A program made the position numbers and the translations under genes. Shown here piece by piece: positions 5,913 through 61,239 of a DNA stretch of 64,000 nucleotides. Each line of letters begins with the position of its first letter. Position 1 is the first letter of the stretch. Source of the DNA: Sphaerobacter thermophilus DSM 20745. GTDB taxonomy: Bacteria > Chloroflexota > Chloroflexia > Thermomicrobiales > Thermomicrobiaceae. The stretch spans positions 806,001 through 870,000 of the forward strand of contig NC_013524.1 in the NCBI RefSeq assembly GCF_000024985.1. Reading direction: 5' to 3'. Below the pieces are notes generated by a model. The model was given only the letters and a program-made list of their open reading frames with translations. It did no database searches and was not told the origin of the DNA.

Positions 5913-7004
5913 CTACCTCACCTCAAACAAGCTGCTCCAGCCCAGCTCGGCGAACTCCGACTGGTGGGCGTGGAACATGTACAGGCCCGGCTCGTGCTCC
6001 TGGTACGAGAACTCCAGGATCCCGCGCTGCGCCTGGCACTGCATGACCGTGTCGATCCGGCGCAGCGTCGGCTCCAGGGTGGTGCCGTGGTCGTAGTAGT
6101 CGAAGAAGTTCGCGTGCAGGTGCAGCGAGTTGACCGGGTCGAACTCCGTGATGTTGATCAGGTAGACCCGGATCGGCCGGGTCCGGTCCACCGGGATCGG
6201 GTGCTTCATATAGTGGAAGGCCACGGTGTTGACGGCGTAGACCTCGTTCTCGCCGTCGAAGTCGGTGTCGAAGGCGTTCATCACCATCACGAACTCCTGC
6301 CACGCGGCCGACTCGGGGTAGTCGGGGTGGCGGGCGCGTGCGGCCTCACCGTGGCGCGCCGGGTCGGGGTTGATGATGAAGGCGCCGTAGAGCCCCTTCG
6401 CGATGTGCTTCTTCAGCGGCATGCTGTGGCAGTGGTAAAGGTGGCAGCCGAACGGCTCCGCCCGGAACTCGTAGGTGAACGCCTCGCCGGGCTCGATATC
6501 GCCGCGGCCGATCCCCGGCACCCCATCCATGGCGGCGGTGTGGATGCCGTGGAAGTGGATCGTGTGCGGGTGGCTCCCGGCGTTGACGAAGTTGACGCGG
6601 ACGAGGTCTCCCTCGTTGCAGCGCAGGGTCGGGCCGGGCACCTGACCGTTGTAGGTCCAGGCCGGGAAGAAAACCCCCGGCGCGATCTCGATCTCCTTGT
6701 CGAAGGCGGTCAGGGTGAACTCCCGCACGGTCTGTCCATCCGCGCCCACGCTGACGGTGCCGTAGTCGAACGCGGTAAGGAAGGCCGACGGGTCGTAGCC
6801 CATCGCGGCGGTGTCGACATCCCCCACCGTCATCGCCGGGCCGTGCGGGGTCGCCGCGTGGTTGTCGGTGTGGCTCTCAGCGTGGGACGTGTGGTCGTGA
6901 TCGCGGCCGGGCGAGCGCGTGCCGAGCCAGCCAAGCCCGCCGACCGCCGCGCTCAGCGAGCCGGCCCGTAGGAACTGTCGTCGTGAGAGCCACCGCTCGC
7001 CCAT
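5913..7004 (-). CDS. Two-domain multicopper oxidase, Tat-exported
   Basis: 363 residues. The N-terminus carries a twin-arginine signal (RRQFLRAG with a following hydrophobic stretch), so the folded enzyme is exported. Four copper-ligand clusters are visible: HPHTIHFHGIH, HLYHCHSMPLKKH, LHLHANFF and MFHAHQSEFAELGW. The Cys-containing HCH motif lies in the first cupredoxin domain and the second has only HAH. This is the two-domain architecture related to nitrite-reductase-like ancestors (family knowledge), with the type 1 site in domain 1. A His-rich linker follows the signal. The likely role is oxidation of metals or small phenols outside the membrane. The ZIP transporter lies downstream, so metal oxidation or uptake is a reasonable inference. 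Confidence 0.88.
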   Translation of the reverse strand: MGERWLSRRQFLRAGSLSAAVGGLGWLGTRSPGRDHDHTSHAESHTDNHAATPHGPAMTVGDVDTAAMGYDPSAFLTAFDYGTVSVGADGQTVREFTLTAFDKEIEIAPGVFFPAWTYNGQVPGPTLRCNEGDLVRVNFVNAGSHPHTIHFHGIHTAAMDGVPGIGRGDIEPGEAFTYEFRAEPFGCHLYHCHSMPLKKHIAKGLYGAFIINPDPARHGEAARARHPDYPESAAWQEFVMVMNAFDTDFDGENEVYAVNTVAFHYMKHPIPVDRTRPIRVYLINITEFDPVNSLHLHANFFDYYDHGTTLEPTLRRIDTVMQCQAQRGILEFSYQEHEPGLYMFHAHQSEFAELGWSSLFEVR

Positions 7005-54077: not shown

Positions 54078-54172
54078 CTCACTGTTTATGCTTTGGAGAG
54101 CGGTTCGTTTGGTCCGGTGACCGGTCACAGCGAGCCCGCCGCGGTGGGGTGTACGCGAGAGAGGGGGCGAGT

Positions 54173-54778
54173 GTGACGCGGGGATCGGTGCTCGGTCGCC
54201 TGGTGCGATCGGGACGGGTGGTGGTGCTGCTCGTCGTCGGCCTGCTGGTGGGGCTGTTCAGCGGGGTGGCGCTGGCCAACCAGGACGCCCAGGTGATCTA
54301 CGGCTGTAAAACCGGGTTGGCCGGGTTGCTGCGCATCGTGGACAACCCGAAAAAGTGCTGGTGGTTCGAGACTCCCATTTCCTGGAACCAGATGGGGCCA
54401 CAGGGGCCACAGGGGCCAGCGGGACCGGCGGGACCCAAGGGCGAGAAAGGCGATCCGGGTCCACAGGGGCCTGCGGGCCCGCAGGGGCCACAGGGACCGA
54501 AAGGTGAGAAGGGCGATTCAGGTCTGGATAACATCACGATCTACACGCCGACCCCAGTGACCATTGAGAATGGGCAGAGTGGGTCCTGGGAGTTCACCTG
54601 TCAGGTTCCCAGTAATCGCGTCTTGGGTGGAGGGTATGAAATTCAGCCTGGCGGACCTGGGGTGGAAGTGCGGGCGAGCCGACCGATTCAATCCTTAGTC
54701 CAAGTGTGGCGGGTGATCGTTACTAACAATTCCGGAACAAACCAGGAATTGACCGTCTCGATGATCTGTGCGCAATAA
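54173..54778 (+). CDS. Collagen-like secreted or surface protein
   Basis: 201 residues from GTG 54173, behind AGAGAGGGGG. A signal or anchor segment ([20 protein letters not shown]) is followed by [14 protein letters not shown] and [18 protein letters not shown], the usual lead-in to bacterial collagen-like tracts. The Gly-X-Y tract runs for about 17 triplets ([19 protein letters not shown] and so on), ending in GEKGDSG. A C-terminal 85-residue beta-rich domain with two cysteines follows. Probably a trimeric extracellular protein. Family knowledge places such proteins on cell surfaces or spores. A hairpin terminator follows. Confidence 0.85.
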
Positions 54779-56484: not shown

Positions 56485-56600
56485 GGCTGCATCGATAATC
56501 CGCGCGGTGCTATTTGAGTCGCTGCGCAGTTCGTCGTAGGACGTGTCCCTCGCCTAGGAGCATCGTCCGCGCGTTTCGCGCAATTCCCAGGAAGGCGATC

Positions 56601-57473
56601 GTGGTCATCCCCCTGCTCCATGTGGCCAGTGGCGCGAACCCGGACGAGTGGTATCTGGCCTGGCATGCCGATCCGCTCCTCACCTTGCTGCTCGGCGGCT
56701 CCGCGGCCGGGTACCTGCTCGCCTACCGGGCGGCCGCCCTGGCCGGCCGGCGGGTGCCGCCCCGTTGGCAGGTCCTCGCCTACCTTGGTGGGCTGGTGAG
56801 TCTGGCGGTGGCGCTCATGGGCCCGCCGGACCACTTCAACGGCGTGCTCTTCTCGGTCCACATGGTCCAGCACCTGATCCTCATGCTGGTCGCCGCGCCG
56901 TTGCTGGTGTTGGGCCGGCCGGTGCAGGTTCTCCTGCGAGGCCTGCGCCCCCACCACAGCCGCGCGCTGATGGGGATCACCGCCCGGCACCCCGGGCTGC
57001 GCGGGCTGCTCGGTATGGTCGTCCACCCGATGACCGTGTTCCTCCTCTATAATGGGAGCTTCCTGTTTTGGCACCTCCCGGGGCCCTATCAGGCCGCCGT
57101 GCGCGACGAGCTCATCCACGATCTGGAGCATGTCGCCTTCTTCGGCACGGCGCTCCTCTTCTGGTGGGTGCTGATCGATCCGGTCCCGCGGCACTATCGC
57201 CTGTCCACGACCGCGGCCGCGCTGCTGCTGTTCGCGACCTGGATGGCCGGGGACCTTATCTGCGCCACGATTACCCTGTCGCGCAACCTCATTTATCCGG
57301 TCTACGCCGAGACGGAGCCGCCCTGGGGCCTGACCCCGCTCGGCGACCAGCGGCTTGGGGGCGCGATCATGTGGGCCAGCGCGGGACTCTACTACGCGGT
57401 GGTCCTGATCGGTCTCCTCGCCGCGCCGTACCTCCGAACGCGCCCGGCGAACCACGCCGGCCAGCACGCCTGA
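56601..57473 (+). CDS. ctaG: CtaG-like cytochrome oxidase assembly protein
   Basis: 290 residues from GTG 56601, with AGGAAGG upstream. Caa3-type CtaG (DUF1404-like) membrane protein with about seven helices. It carries the conserved HMVQHLILMLVAAPLLVLGR and the histidine-bearing HDLEHVAFFGTALLFWW, likely to bind copper. CtaG of this type is needed to assemble the copper centre of caa3 or ba3 oxidases. It is the first gene of the operon that goes on with a small one-helix protein, subunit II, subunit I and CtaA. Confidence 0.88.
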   Translation: MVIPLLHVASGANPDEWYLAWHADPLLTLLLGGSAAGYLLAYRAAALAGRRVPPRWQVLAYLGGLVSLAVALMGPPDHFNGVLFSVHMVQHLILMLVAAPLLVLGRPVQVLLRGLRPHHSRALMGITARHPGLRGLLGMVVHPMTVFLLYNGSFLFWHLPGPYQAAVRDELIHDLEHVAFFGTALLFWWVLIDPVPRHYRLSTTAAALLLFATWMAGDLICATITLSRNLIYPVYAETEPPWGLTPLGDQRLGGAIMWASAGLYYAVVLIGLLAAPYLRTRPANHAGQHA

Positions 57474-57697
57474 TCGGTCCGCGCCCAGCGACCTGGCGCG
57501 GCATCGGATCCCACCCCAGCGGGTGGGGCGAAACCATCCCGACGGGTAGGACACAGCCGGTGGCGTTGTTGCTACCGTAGCGCAAACCCGGCAGCGTAGC
57601 GCGAGCCAGCGTCCCAACGATCGTTCCCTGGTCATCCGCGGCAGCGGTTCATATCGCCGGTTGCGGCTCGATGAGCGTACCGGAAGGGGCATGACGT

Positions 57698-57868
57698 ATG
57701 GCACACGACGATCCATCGCAGACTCCGAGTCGGGAGCGACCCCCCTGGCCGCAGGTGCTTCTCGATGACCTGTTCTTGCTCCTGCTCGCCGGGCTGGTGG
57801 TGCCGACGTTGACCTACATCGTGTGGGGGCTGATCAGCCTGGCCAACGTGCCGCTCTTCGGGGAGTAG
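57698..57868 (+). CDS. Small one-helix membrane protein of oxidase operon
   Basis: 56 residues from ATG 57698, with AAGGGG eight bases upstream. The N-terminal 20 residues are polar and proline-rich (MAHDDPSQTPSRERPPW), followed by one transmembrane segment, LFLLLLAGLVVPTLTYIVWG. It ends 48 bases before the subunit II gene. In ba3-type oxidases a small subunit IIa with one helix supplies the first helix of subunit II (known for Thermus), so this may be its counterpart. Homology cannot be shown for such a short protein. Confidence 0.7.
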   Translation: MAHDDPSQTPSRERPPWPQVLLDDLFLLLLAGLVVPTLTYIVWGLISLANVPLFGE

Positions 57869-57916
57869 CGACAGGGCTGGGCGGCTCGCCCGCGCGAAGG
57901 GGGAAAGGGGGTGTAC

Positions 57917-58468
57917 ATGGCTGGCAGGTTCAGCCCGCTGGCGAAGCCCCAGGGGACGTGGTGGAGCCCGCTGGGCCGCGACGAGCGGCTCTGGGTGGCG
58001 ATCGCTGCCATCTGGGGCCTGGGCATGTTCCTGATGATCGCGTTCATCTGGCCGGCGATCGGCAACGAGCAGAACGAGATTCAGAGCTATCGGATCGATC
58101 CCGCCGAGTTTCACCGCCTGACCATGGAGTTCACCGAGGCGCACCAGATCGGGGAGATGGATGGTGTGCCGGTGGTTGCTCCGCCGCCAGGCAGCGACAT
58201 CTACCTGGAGGGGCAGCAGTTCGCCTGGCGGCCGGTGGTGCAGCTCAAGCGCGGCGAGCAGTACCGGTTCCTGATCTCCTCGCGCGATGTGCAGCACGGC
58301 TTCTCGCTGGTGATGGAGCGCCACAGCGTCAACTTCCAGGTCTTGCCGGGGTTCGTCACCGCGATCCGCCTGACGCCCGAGCAGGTGGGCGAGTTCGCTG
58401 TCGTCTGTAACGAGTTCTGTGGCGCGGGTCACCACCTTATGACCGGCCGGATCATCGTGACCGACTAG
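57917..58468 (+). CDS. Cytochrome oxidase subunit II, CuA-containing
   Basis: 183 residues from ATG 57917; GTG 57911 is two codons earlier. One N-terminal transmembrane helix (VAIAAIWGLGMFLMIAFIW) is followed by a periplasmic cupredoxin. The CuA ligands are complete: His in RDVQHGF, then CNEFCGAGHHLM with two Cys, His and Met. The single-helix form is that of ba3-type enzymes. It accepts electrons from a cytochrome c or cupredoxin and passes them to subunit I. It starts 48 bases after the small one-helix gene and ends 24 bases before subunit I. Confidence 0.93.
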   Translation: MAGRFSPLAKPQGTWWSPLGRDERLWVAIAAIWGLGMFLMIAFIWPAIGNEQNEIQSYRIDPAEFHRLTMEFTEAHQIGEMDGVPVVAPPPGSDIYLEGQQFAWRPVVQLKRGEQYRFLISSRDVQHGFSLVMERHSVNFQVLPGFVTAIRLTPEQVGEFAVVCNEFCGAGHHLMTGRIIVTD

Positions 58469-58492
58469 GGCGCGGAGGAAAGGGGCAACACG

Positions 58493-60232
58493 ATGCAGAC
58501 GGCAATATCAGGCCTGGCGCGCCGCTGTGGGGTCACCGGTCTCGTGATCGACCGGTCGGCCGAGCGGCTGATTAAGTTCCACGCGGTGACCGCGGTCCTC
58601 TTCCTGGCGCTCGGCGGCATACTGGCGCTGCTGATCGCGCTGACCCGTTGGCAGGTGGTCCATCTCCTGCCGGCCAAGCAGTTCTACGCCTTCCTCTCCG
58701 CGCACGGCATGGTCATGCTGATCTTCTGGATCCTCTTCTTCGAGATGGCCGGCCTCGTCTTCGGCAGCACGGTGCTGCTGAGTGCGCGGATGGTGGTACC
58801 TCGGCTCGGCTGGGTGGCCTACGCCATGATGCTGGGTGGCGCGGTGGTCGCCACCGGGCTGATGCTGACCGACCGGGCGACGGTGATGTTTACCTCCTAC
58901 CCACCGCTTCAGGCTCCGCCTCTCTACTACGCGTCGGTCCTGGTCTTCGCGGTGGGGGCAATCCTGGGGGTAGTTCACTTCTTCATCAACGTCCTCGCCG
59001 CGCGGATGCGGGGGGATGTCGGCTCACTGCCGCTCTTCACCTTCGCGCTGGCGGGGGCGGGGATCATCGCGCTCTGGAGCCTGATCTCCGGTGCCGCGGC
59101 GCTGCTGCCGGCCTTCCTCTGGTCGGCGGGTGTGATCGACTCGATCGACCCAGGCGTCTACCGGCTCCTCTACTGGGGGCTGGGGCACGGGGCGCAGCAG
59201 GTCAACCTGGCGGCGATGGTGGCGGTCTGGTACGGGCTCGCGAGCCTGATGACCGGCGGCCGCCCCCTCAACGAGGGCCTGAGTCGCTTCGCGATCGTCC
59301 TCTACATCTTCTTCATCAACATGGGGGCGATGCACCACCTGCTGGTCGACCCGGGCCTGACCCCGTGGCTGCGCAACATCAACACCAGCTACTTCATGTA
59401 CCTCGCCGTACTCGGGAGCCTGATCCATGGCTTCAGCATTCCCGCCTCGGTCGAGCTGGGGATGCGGACACAGGGGCACCGACGGGGTCTGTTCGGCTGG
59501 CTGCGGCGGGCGCCCTGGGGGGAGCCGGGCTTCGCCGCGCTCGCGGTGAGCCTGTTCCTCTTCGGGGTCATGGGTGGCATCAGCGGGGTGATCATCGGCG
59601 GGCCGCAGGTGAACATGATCGTGCACAACACGCTGCTGTCGCCCGCGCACTTCCATATGACGGTGGTGGCGGGCACGACGATCGCCTTCATGGGGCTCGC
59701 CTACTACCTCGTGCCGCTGATCTTCCAGCGGCAACTCGTGCTGCGGGGCTGGGCCCGGTACCAGCCGTATCTCTATGGCGCGGGCATGGTCGTCTGGGGG
59801 ATCGGGACCGGGCTGGCGGGGCACTGGGGCGTGCCGCGGCGGCACTGGGACATCACCTTCGATCGGGTCTCGACGCTCCCCACCCAGATCTTCCAGACGA
59901 CCGAGGTGGATGTCTTCATGGCACTGCTGGGGATCGGCGCGGTGATTGCGGTGATCGGCGGCGCGATGTTCGTGACGATTATCGTCGCCACCGTCGCACT
60001 TGGGCAGCGCACCGCGACGCCAGACCTGGGGCGGGTTATGGCGAACGCGTTCTCGTCGGCGCCGGCCGTGGCCGGAGCCTCCGGTGAGGAGGGGGAGGCT
60101 CCGGCGCCCGCCCACGGCGCGTTCGAGGCGCCGGGCGCGCTGGTGCTGTCCCTGGCGTTCTTGACGCTGTTCGTGTTGCTGTACGGCTTCTCCTGGTTTG
60201 AGTTGAGCACCGTGCCCTGGCAGGTGCGCTAG
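58493..60232 (+). CDS. Heme-copper subunit I, B-family-like, lacking the active-site Tyr
   Basis: 579 residues with about 13 or 14 helices. All six heme- and copper-binding histidines are visible: SAHGMVM (low-spin heme), GLGHGAQQ and GAMHHLL (CuB) and LSPAHFHMTVV (both hemes). HHLLVDPGL is like HHQFADPGI of Thermus ba3, so it is B-family-like. In helix VI the usual GHPxVY has become GHGAQQVNL: the tyrosine cross-linked to the CuB histidine is Gln here. Oxygen-reducing members need that Tyr (or one supplied elsewhere), and NO-reducing members of the superfamily lack it. Hence either an NO reductase or an oxidase with a displaced Tyr. Confidence 0.9.
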   Translation: MQTAISGLARRCGVTGLVIDRSAERLIKFHAVTAVLFLALGGILALLIALTRWQVVHLLPAKQFYAFLSAHGMVMLIFWILFFEMAGLVFGSTVLLSARMVVPRLGWVAYAMMLGGAVVATGLMLTDRATVMFTSYPPLQAPPLYYASVLVFAVGAILGVVHFFINVLAARMRGDVGSLPLFTFALAGAGIIALWSLISGAAALLPAFLWSAGVIDSIDPGVYRLLYWGLGHGAQQVNLAAMVAVWYGLASLMTGGRPLNEGLSRFAIVLYIFFINMGAMHHLLVDPGLTPWLRNINTSYFMYLAVLGSLIHGFSIPASVELGMRTQGHRRGLFGWLRRAPWGEPGFAALAVSLFLFGVMGGISGVIIGGPQVNMIVHNTLLSPAHFHMTVVAGTTIAFMGLAYYLVPLIFQRQLVLRGWARYQPYLYGAGMVVWGIGTGLAGHWGVPRRHWDITFDRVSTLPTQIFQTTEVDVFMALLGIGAVIAVIGGAMFVTIIVATVALGQRTATPDLGRVMANAFSSAPAVAGASGEEGEAPAPAHGAFEAPGALVLSLAFLTLFVLLYGFSWFELSTVPWQVR

Positions 60233-60264
60233 ATCCGGCCCGAGCGTGGGGCGTGGGAAAGAGC

Positions 60265-61239
60265 ATGAGAGGTGGTCTAGCTCCGGTGTCCTCGACGATG
60301 GTCCCCCGACGCTTCGCCCGGCTGGCGATCGCCACCGCGGTCGCCGGCTATCTCCTGATCGTGGTCGGCGGCACGGTCCGCGTGACCGGTGCCGGAATGG
60401 GCTGCGGTCCCGACTGGCCGCTCTGCAATGGTCAGGTCATCCCGGAGTGGGATGTGCTGGCCTGGACTGAGTTCATCCACCGGGTGGTGGCGCTGGCGGT
60501 CATCCTGCTGACCGGGCTGCTCGCGGTGCAGGGCTGGCGGCTGCGGCGGATCAACCCCTGGTTCGCTCGCCTGCCGCTGGCTGCGGTCGGGCTGGTGCTG
60601 GTGCAGGCGTCGCTCGGCGCGATCACGGTGTTCACCCACCTGGACGCGCTGGTCGTCACGATCCACCTGGGGGTGGCACTCACGTATCTGGCGATCGGCC
60701 TGGGCCTCGCCCTGCTCGCGGTGGCGGTGAACGGCGAGCGTGGGGAGTCTCGCATCGGGCGCGGCGCGCGGCTCGGTGCCTGGGCACCCGCCGCTGCCGC
60801 CGGCGTCTTCGCGGTGATGCTGACCGGGGCGTACACCGCCAAGAGCGGCGCCAGCATCGCCTGCACCGAGTGGCCGCTCTGCGGCGGGGCGTGGGTGCCG
60901 ACGGGCTGGACGCCGGTCGATGTCCACCTTACCCACCGGTGGACCGCGGTCGTGGCGGCCGTGCTGGTGGCGGTGGTGGGGCGGCACGCCCGGCGCTGGC
61001 GCGCGGACGCGCCGATGCTCGCGACGCTCGGCAGCACCGCCGACCTGTTGATGGTGGTGCAGATCCTGGTCGGGGCGGCCAATATCTGGCTCGACCTCGC
61101 ACCAGTAGTGCGGATCGCCCACCTGGCGATTGCGGCGCTCATCTGGGCACTGCTGGTGCTGCTGGTGCTGCTGGATCGGCAACCGGCGCTGGCCGCCGCC
61201 CCGCTGCCGCGTTCGGCGCCCGCTCCATCCCGTGCCTGA
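60265..61239 (+). CDS. ctaA: Heme A synthase CtaA (second copy)
   Basis: 324 residues from ATG 60265, with GGGAAAG just upstream; a GTG four codons earlier and ATG 60298 are alternatives. The heme-ligand histidines EFIHRVVA, VTIHLGVA, HLTHRWTA and RIAHLAIA and the loop Cys pairs CGPDWPLCNG and CTEWPLCGG are those of CtaA/Cox15. It oxidises heme o to heme a. It follows subunit I by about 30 bases, suggesting that the enzyme encoded here uses heme a. The fused CtaA-CtaB at 26.9 kb is paralogous to it; no CtaB is in this operon. Confidence 0.93.
   Translation: MRGGLAPVSSTMVPRRFARLAIATAVAGYLLIVVGGTVRVTGAGMGCGPDWPLCNGQVIPEWDVLAWTEFIHRVVALAVILLTGLLAVQGWRLRRINPWFARLPLAAVGLVLVQASLGAITVFTHLDALVVTIHLGVALTYLAIGLGLALLAVAVNGERGESRIGRGARLGAWAPAAAAGVFAVMLTGAYTAKSGASIACTEWPLCGGAWVPTGWTPVDVHLTHRWTAVVAAVLVAVVGRHARRWRADAPMLATLGSTADLLMVVQILVGAANIWLDLAPVVRIAHLAIAALIWALLVLLVLLDRQPALAAAPLPRSAPAPSRA

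What the first reader, a model, noticed from the sequence alone, without database searches (positions are those of the whole stretch)
58493..60232. Subunit I has Gln instead of the active-site Tyr: NO reductase candidate
All six histidines of heme-copper enzymes are present, and HHLLVDPGL resembles ba3. But the helix VI motif reads GHGAQQVNL, so the residue four after the CuB His is Gln, where oxidases have the cross-linked Tyr. NO-reducing lineages with a CuA subunit II (described as CuA-NOR/bNOR and sNOR) also lack that Tyr. The operon would then make a heme a-containing NO reductase rather than an oxidase. An LYIFFINMG Tyr in helix VII, three residues from the position of the cbb3 Tyr, leaves room for an oxidase with a moved Tyr.
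Basis: partly seen in the sequence, partly recalled or inferred. Interest (0 to 1): 0.78.

Follow-up and report, generated by a model that had tools for sequence, protein, structure and literature searches.

The report
Nitric oxide reductase mislabelled as oxidase
This bacterium's supposed oxygen-using enzyme lacks the tyrosine that oxygen chemistry needs and belongs to a known enzyme family (eNOR) that turns nitric oxide into nitrous oxide, which fills the gap in a denitrification pathway that earlier genome surveys called incomplete.

Summary
The 579-aa subunit I at 58493-60232 has all six heme-copper histidines, and Gln236 stands four residues after the CuB histidine in helix VI, where B-family oxidases have the cross-linked Tyr. 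Gln235 and Gln236 are invariant in 101 distinct homologues; Tyr is invariant in 42 B-family oxidases. The tree gives two separate clades (100/99).

sNOR and bNOR carry Asn at this site; Gln is the published hallmark of eNOR (PMC8756737), a family with a characterised member according to PMC11388526. The operon has a CuA subunit II (ligands conserved in 84 sequences), a 56-aa one-helix subunit, CtaG and CtaA. Homologues lie in operons with nirK or nirS. The same genome has a full NirK and NosZ and no other NOR-type heme-copper gene, so this gene fills the NO to N2O step; a 2023 study called that step missing in Sphaerobacter (PMC9977764). The 'moved Tyr' alternative fails: Tyr271 is four residues off the cbb3 position and is Ile in five homologues.

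Verdict: a new member of a known kind. Activity is not shown.

The parts
56514..57473 (+). CtaG-like Cu insertion/assembly factor (Caa3_CtaG), start codon uncertain
   Evidence: Pfam PF09678 3.3e-61; upstream of subunit II in the Sphaerobacter/Thermomicrobium loci
57698..57868 (+).
   Evidence: A hydrophobic ORF of similar size lies directly upstream of subunit II in 77 of 85 eNOR loci; close relatives share the pattern DDxFLLxxxGLVVPTLxYxxWGL; annotated as hypothetical in T. roseum
57911..58468 (+). CuA subunit II, 185 aa; start GTG 57911 or ATG 57917
   Evidence: COX2 Pfam 7.4e-06; CuA ligands H129, C166, C170, H174, M177 84/84 and E168 82/84 (2 Asp); Glu25 84/84, equivalent by sequence context to ba3 subunit II Glu15 at the K-path mouth
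58493..60232 (+). eNOR subunit I, catalytic heme-copper subunit, 579 aa
59186..59203 (+). Helix VI active-site motif H232-G-A-Q235-Q236-V (Gln in place of the cross-linked Tyr)
   Evidence: Invariant QQ in 101 distinct family members; VY in 42 of 42 B-family oxidases
59303..59338 (+). Helix VII Tyr271 to His281/His282 (candidate 'moved Tyr')
   Evidence: Tyr 96/101, Ile 5/101; CuB His pair 101/101
60253..61239 (+). CtaA/COX15 heme a synthase
   Evidence: Pfam PF02628 7.9e-41; the same position in relatives holds CtaA or a CtaA-CtaB fusion

Best explanation
The operon 56514-61239 makes an eNOR-type nitric oxide reductase. Inferred mechanism: reduced cytochrome c or a cupredoxin gives electrons to CuA in subunit II, then to the low-spin heme in subunit I, then to the high-spin heme/CuB centre. 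Two NO bind there and are joined to N2O and water. No Tyr radical is needed, because no O-O bond is split; Gln236 (with Gln235, Asn238 and His312) occupies the place of the oxidase Tyr and probably orders water and protons around the bound intermediate. Protons come from the cytoplasm by a K-type path (Glu25 of subunit II, Ser315, Ser309, Tyr247, His312), so turnover is likely electrogenic. In this organism the enzyme takes NO from NirK and hands N2O to NosZ. Shown here: the sequence features, family membership, operon and genome context. Inferred: substrate, electron donor, heme types, proton path and any pumping.
For: Gln at this site defines eNOR, while sNOR and CuANOR have Asn and c/qNOR have Glu (PMC8756737). 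Q235/Q236 are 101/101 in the family against V/Y 42/42 in B-family oxidases. The Gln proteins form one clade, 100/99, separate from the Tyr proteins. CuA ligands are conserved. Family members stand in operons with nirK (G088: NirK, subunit II, subunit I, CyoE in one direction) or directly downstream of nirS (G402, G437, G439); none of 32 B-family oxidase neighbourhoods has nir. G088 matches Ardenticatena maritima in family, size and layout, whose eNOR was reported in an operon with NirK (PMC4653789). Nir occurs in 27 of 35 genomes with the gene against 7 of 32 relatives with only a Tyr oxidase of the B family (p = 8e-6). The own genome has NirK (368 bits, over cut-off), Sec-type NosZ (915 bits, over cut-off) and five COX1 genes, of which only this one lacks the Tyr. 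The T. thermophilus plasmid homologue sits with Rrf2, DUF542, P460 and multicopper oxidase genes.
Against: No activity data for this protein. The gene is on the other contig from nirK and nosZ, not in one operon with them. Eight of 35 genomes with the gene have no NirK or NirS, among them three of the window's own family. The characterised R. marinus sequence could not be fetched, so it is not in the tree. The co-occurrence test is not corrected for phylogeny. No FNR/DNR-like site was found upstream.
Confidence: 0.88

Rival explanations
1. It is an oxygen reductase of a B-like lineage that works without the helix VI Tyr, using Tyr271 of helix VII as a moved radical donor, as cbb3 does.
For: Tyr271 is present in 96 of 101 homologues; ba3-like fold; CtaA and CtaG as in oxidase operons.
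Against: Tyr271 is Ile in a clade (L014, L015, L044, L046, L049) that keeps QQ, N238, H312 and all ligands. It lies 10 residues before the CuB His pair against 6 in cbb3, a full helix turn away. The genome already has four Tyr-bearing oxidases. nir linkage is absent from real B-family oxidases.
Confidence: 0.05
2. It is an NO reductase with a mainly detoxifying role in aerobic cells, against external or self-made NO, not a respiratory denitrification enzyme.
For: No narG over cut-off and no NIR_SIR gene in the own genome; some carriers lack nir; NO-stress type genes beside the Thermus and Defluviimonas copies.
Against: Own NirK and NosZ; conserved CuA and K-path residues suggest a role in energy metabolism.
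Confidence: 0.3
3. It is an sNOR or bNOR (CuA-NOR), as the first reader suggested by analogy.
For: Same B-type scaffold with a CuA subunit II.
Against: Those families have Asn at the diagnostic site (PMC8756737 Table A4); this clade has Gln in 101 of 101.
Confidence: 0.03

Closest known systems
eNOR (Hemp and Gennis 2008; Ardenticatena maritima; Rhodothermus marinus enzyme of Murali et al. 2024, paper not held)
   Same: Gln at the Tyr position, CuA cupredoxin subunit II just upstream, B-type scaffold, one predicted proton channel, found in Chloroflexi and in operons with nirK or nirS
   Different: About 53% identical to the probable A. maritima protein; here unlinked to nir and flanked by CtaG and CtaA; carries a small one-helix subunit not mentioned in the papers read
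B-family ba3 oxygen reductase (T. thermophilus)
   Same: Fold (VIA-align Z 36, 23-24% identity), six His, CuA subunit II, HHxxxDPG motif, subunit II Glu and Tyr247/Ser309 of the K-path
   Different: No helix VI Tyr; Gln235, Gln236, Asn238 and His312 replace Val, Tyr, Trp and Thr; separate clade
bNOR/CuA-NOR and sNOR
   Same: CuA-containing NO reductases on a B-type scaffold
   Different: Asn, not Gln, at the diagnostic site (PMC8756737)
cNOR and qNOR
   Same: Catalyse NO to N2O in most known denitrifiers
   Different: Glu at the site, heme c or fused quinol subunit, no CuA; none found in this genome by the COX1 search

Membership tests
eNOR | Gln at the position of the cross-linked Tyr in helix VI | tested here: met
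   Gln236; 101/101 homologues; definition from PMC8756737
eNOR | Six heme/CuB histidines | tested here: met
   H71, H232, H281, H282, H386, H388
eNOR | Cupredoxin (CuA) subunit II directly upstream | tested here: met
   57911-58468 with all CuA ligands; conserved in 84 sequences
eNOR | Groups with published eNORs, apart from oxygen reductases | tested here: inconclusive
   One Gln clade, 100/99, holding Ardenticatenaceae, Anaerolineales and Thermus members, groups named in PMC8756737 and PMC4653789; the R. marinus reference itself could not be fetched
eNOR | One proton channel | tested here: inconclusive
   K-path residues kept or replaced by polar ones (subunit II E25, Y247, S309, S315, H312); sequence only
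eNOR | NO reductase activity | not testable with these tools
   No biochemistry available
B-family oxygen reductase | Tyr four residues after the helix VI CuB His | tested here: not met
   Gln in the window; Tyr in 42/42 B-family members
sNOR / bNOR (CuA-NOR) | Asn at the helix VI site | tested here: not met
   Gln236; definition from PMC8756737
cNOR / qNOR | Glu at the helix VI site; no CuA subunit | tested here: not met
   Gln236 and an intact CuA subunit II
cbb3 (C-family) type moved Tyr | Tyr in helix VII six residues before the CuB His pair | tested here: not met
   Nearest Tyr is ten residues before and is not fully conserved; cbb3 numbering from own knowledge

The most novel reading that the evidence does not exclude
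The invariant Gln235-Gln236-Asn238-His312-Glu84 set, together with the conserved one-helix third subunit, makes a proton-delivering (perhaps pumping) NO reductase site of its own design, so that this lineage conserves energy from NO reduction, unlike cNOR.
Probability: 0.3. Interest if true: 0.6.

Novelty: new member of a known kind. Interest (0 to 1): 0.38.

Why it matters
Genes of this family are labelled as cbb3-type or b(o/a)3-type cytochrome oxidases in public records, so denitrification surveys miss them. Graf et al. 2014 counted no nor in any of the Chloroflexi genomes with nirK, nirS or nosZ, and none in R. marinus (PMC4250227). Here the missing step is identified, and Sphaerobacter becomes a probable nitrite-to-N2 denitrifier, which bears on N2O budgets in composts and hot soils. 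The residue set also gives testable sites for how NO reduction works without the oxidase Tyr.

Tried and rejected
FNR/DNR-like palindromes (TTGATN4ATCAA, up to 2 mismatches): 14 in the window against 4 expected, but none upstream of the operon (only one inside ctaG), so no regulatory claim. Rhodothermus marinus eNOR could not be reached: its plasmid is held but a genus search needs a genome handle, and the PNAS 2024 paper is not held. Reference sNOR/bNOR sequences were looked for among plasmid hits; none with Asn at the site was found; all those opened had Tyr there and served as extra oxidases only. The structure model came without coordinates, so distances around Gln236 and Tyr271 could not be measured; pLDDT also drops to 63-76 around residues 271-310. 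The scan of genome contigs used a QQ[IV]NL pattern and is therefore biased towards Gln; the unbiased whole-genome searches gave the same split. Physical nir linkage alone, 8 of about 84 distinct eNOR loci by rough count against 0 of 32 controls, is not significant by Fisher (p = 0.10); it matters as operon evidence, not as a count.

Full report
What is there. The ORF 58493-60232 (+), 579 aa, is a heme-copper subunit I. The window is part of contig 2 of a 3.99 Mb, two-contig genome; two Sphaerobacter MAGs hold the same protein at 95-96% identity, so the source is very probably Sphaerobacter thermophilus (inference). All six ligand histidines are present.

Surroundings. The operon is CtaG (56514-57473), a 56-aa one-helix ORF (57698-57868), CuA subunit II (57911-58468), subunit I, and CtaA (60253-61239). 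In subunit II all CuA ligands are conserved, and so is Glu25, which by its E-x-x-W context matches the K-path entry Glu15 of ba3 subunit II (the ba3 role is own knowledge).

The family. Searches of 400 genomes of the phylum, 120 of one related class and named species give two sharply separate groups: homologues at about 43-96% identity, all with HxxQQ, and B-family oxidases at about 30% with HPxVY or HAxVY. In 101 distinct family members Q235, Q236, N238, H312 and E84 never vary; in 42 oxidases the first four sites are V, Y, W and T in all, and site 84 has other residues. The genome-contig scan used a QQ pattern and is biased, but the whole-genome searches were not and agree. A 62-row maximum-likelihood tree puts all 45 Gln rows on one side of a branch with 100/99 support, next to the Tyr oxidases; the window sits with Sphaerobacter and Thermomicrobium. 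The family reaches Deinococcota, Nitrospinota, Spirochaetota, Actinomycetota, Myxococcota and Pseudomonadota. A structure model (mean pLDDT 84, pTM 0.86) has the heme-copper fold (ba3 first by Foldseek; Z about 36); it cannot tell oxidase from NOR.

Name of the family. Schwartz et al. 2022 define eNOR by exactly this Gln, with a cupredoxin subunit II just upstream, and list Asn for sNOR and CuANOR, Glu for cNOR/qNOR and Tyr for oxidases (PMC8756737). PMC11388526 states that eNOR has been biochemically characterised and reduces NO under microoxic conditions; the primary paper (PNAS 2024) is not held. Ardenticatena maritima was reported with eNOR in an operon with NirK (PMC4653789, 3.62 Mb, 12 contigs). 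Genome G088 (about 3.6 Mb, about 10 contigs, same family code as two genomes whose proteins equal those of named Ardenticatenaceae records) has that arrangement: NirK, subunit II, subunit I, CyoE in one direction. It is probably that species (inference), and its protein is about 53% identical to the window's.

Function from context. In three other genomes the pair stands directly downstream of nirS (G402, G437, G439). T. thermophilus plasmid copies stand near an Rrf2 regulator, DUF542, a multicopper oxidase and, in one, cytochrome P460, and the Defluviimonas copy near a hemerythrin. No nir gene lies near any of 32 B-family oxidases taken as controls. NirK or NirS is present in 27 of 35 genomes with the gene and in 7 of 32 with a B-family oxidase only (Fisher p = 8e-6; not corrected for kinship). 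Eight carriers have neither.

The own genome. It has a NirK over the curated cut-off at C1:170320-171213 followed by a multicopper oxidase and a GAF histidine kinase/LuxR response regulator pair, a Sec-type NosZ over cut-off at C1:816325-818127, no NirS, no NarG over cut-off and no NIR_SIR. The COX1 search finds five genes: two A-family (HPEVY) and two B-family (HPIVY) with Tyr, and this one. So this is the only candidate for a heme-copper NOR between NirK and NosZ. A study of a consortium noted nirK and nos in Sphaerobacter but found the NO step missing (PMC9977764); a compost study reported nosZ expression in S. thermophilus (PMC8434746); Graf et al. 2014 counted Chloroflexi with nirK and nosZ as lacking nor, and R. 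marinus too (PMC4250227). Mislabelling as cytochrome oxidase would explain both (inference). Other NO-removing proteins were not searched for.

Moved Tyr. Tyr271 is in 96 of 101 members, but a Thermomicrobiaceae clade has Ile there with everything else intact. It is 10 residues before the CuB His pair against 6 in cbb3, a helix turn off. A cross-link from there is unlikely, and NO reduction does not need one.

Mechanism. Shown: ligands, CuA, Gln site, operon, pathway neighbours. Inferred: NO as substrate, electron entry at CuA, heme a at the active site (CtaA next door, CtaA-CtaB fusion in T. roseum; but CtaA also serves the genome's oxidases), proton uptake by a K-type path with His312 in the place of ba3 Thr312, and electrogenic turnover.

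Verdict. Interest is moderate: it is not a new class of enzyme, but it closes a stated gap and corrects an annotation that is wrong across many genomes.

Noticed in passing
L088:9720-11303 (+): Directly behind an eNOR gene of a groundwater Chloroflexi MAG lies a second COX1-family protein (95 bits) that has lost the helix VII His-His pair (PLPYFL) but keeps helix VI GHSFQY and helix X HYH: a CuB-less paralogue on a very long branch.
   Followed up: partly
L116 and L119 (T. thermophilus plasmids): Plasmid-borne eNOR homologues annotated as cbb3-type or b(o/a)3-type oxidase sit beside Rrf2, DUF542, a cytochrome c and a multicopper oxidase (P460 in L116), which looks like a mobile NO-handling module.
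   Followed up: partly
eNOR loci of Anaerolineales, e.g. L061, L094, L104: About 40 of 89 loci have a cytochrome b (bc-type N-terminal domain) gene, in most some 4.5-6 kb downstream, a possible dedicated electron donor complex.
   Followed up: partly
window 5913-7004 (-): A 363-aa multicopper oxidase, weakly NirK-like (86 bits, below the NirK cut-off), 52 kb from the operon.
   Followed up: no
G000:C1:169476-171213: The genome's NirK is followed by a multicopper oxidase and a GAF histidine kinase with a LuxR-type response regulator, a possible nitrite/NO-sensing pair.
   Followed up: partly
window 54149-54778 (+): Small protein with a collagen-like [22 protein letters not shown] repeat (Pfam Collagen 6.7e-08).
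   Followed up: no
G483 (L130, L132): One Chloroflexota genome carries two diverged eNOR subunit I genes (54% and 48% identity to the window).
   Followed up: no
L117:9835-11637: T. roseum has a 600-aa CtaA-CtaB fusion behind its eNOR genes, annotated only as heme o synthase.
   Followed up: partly
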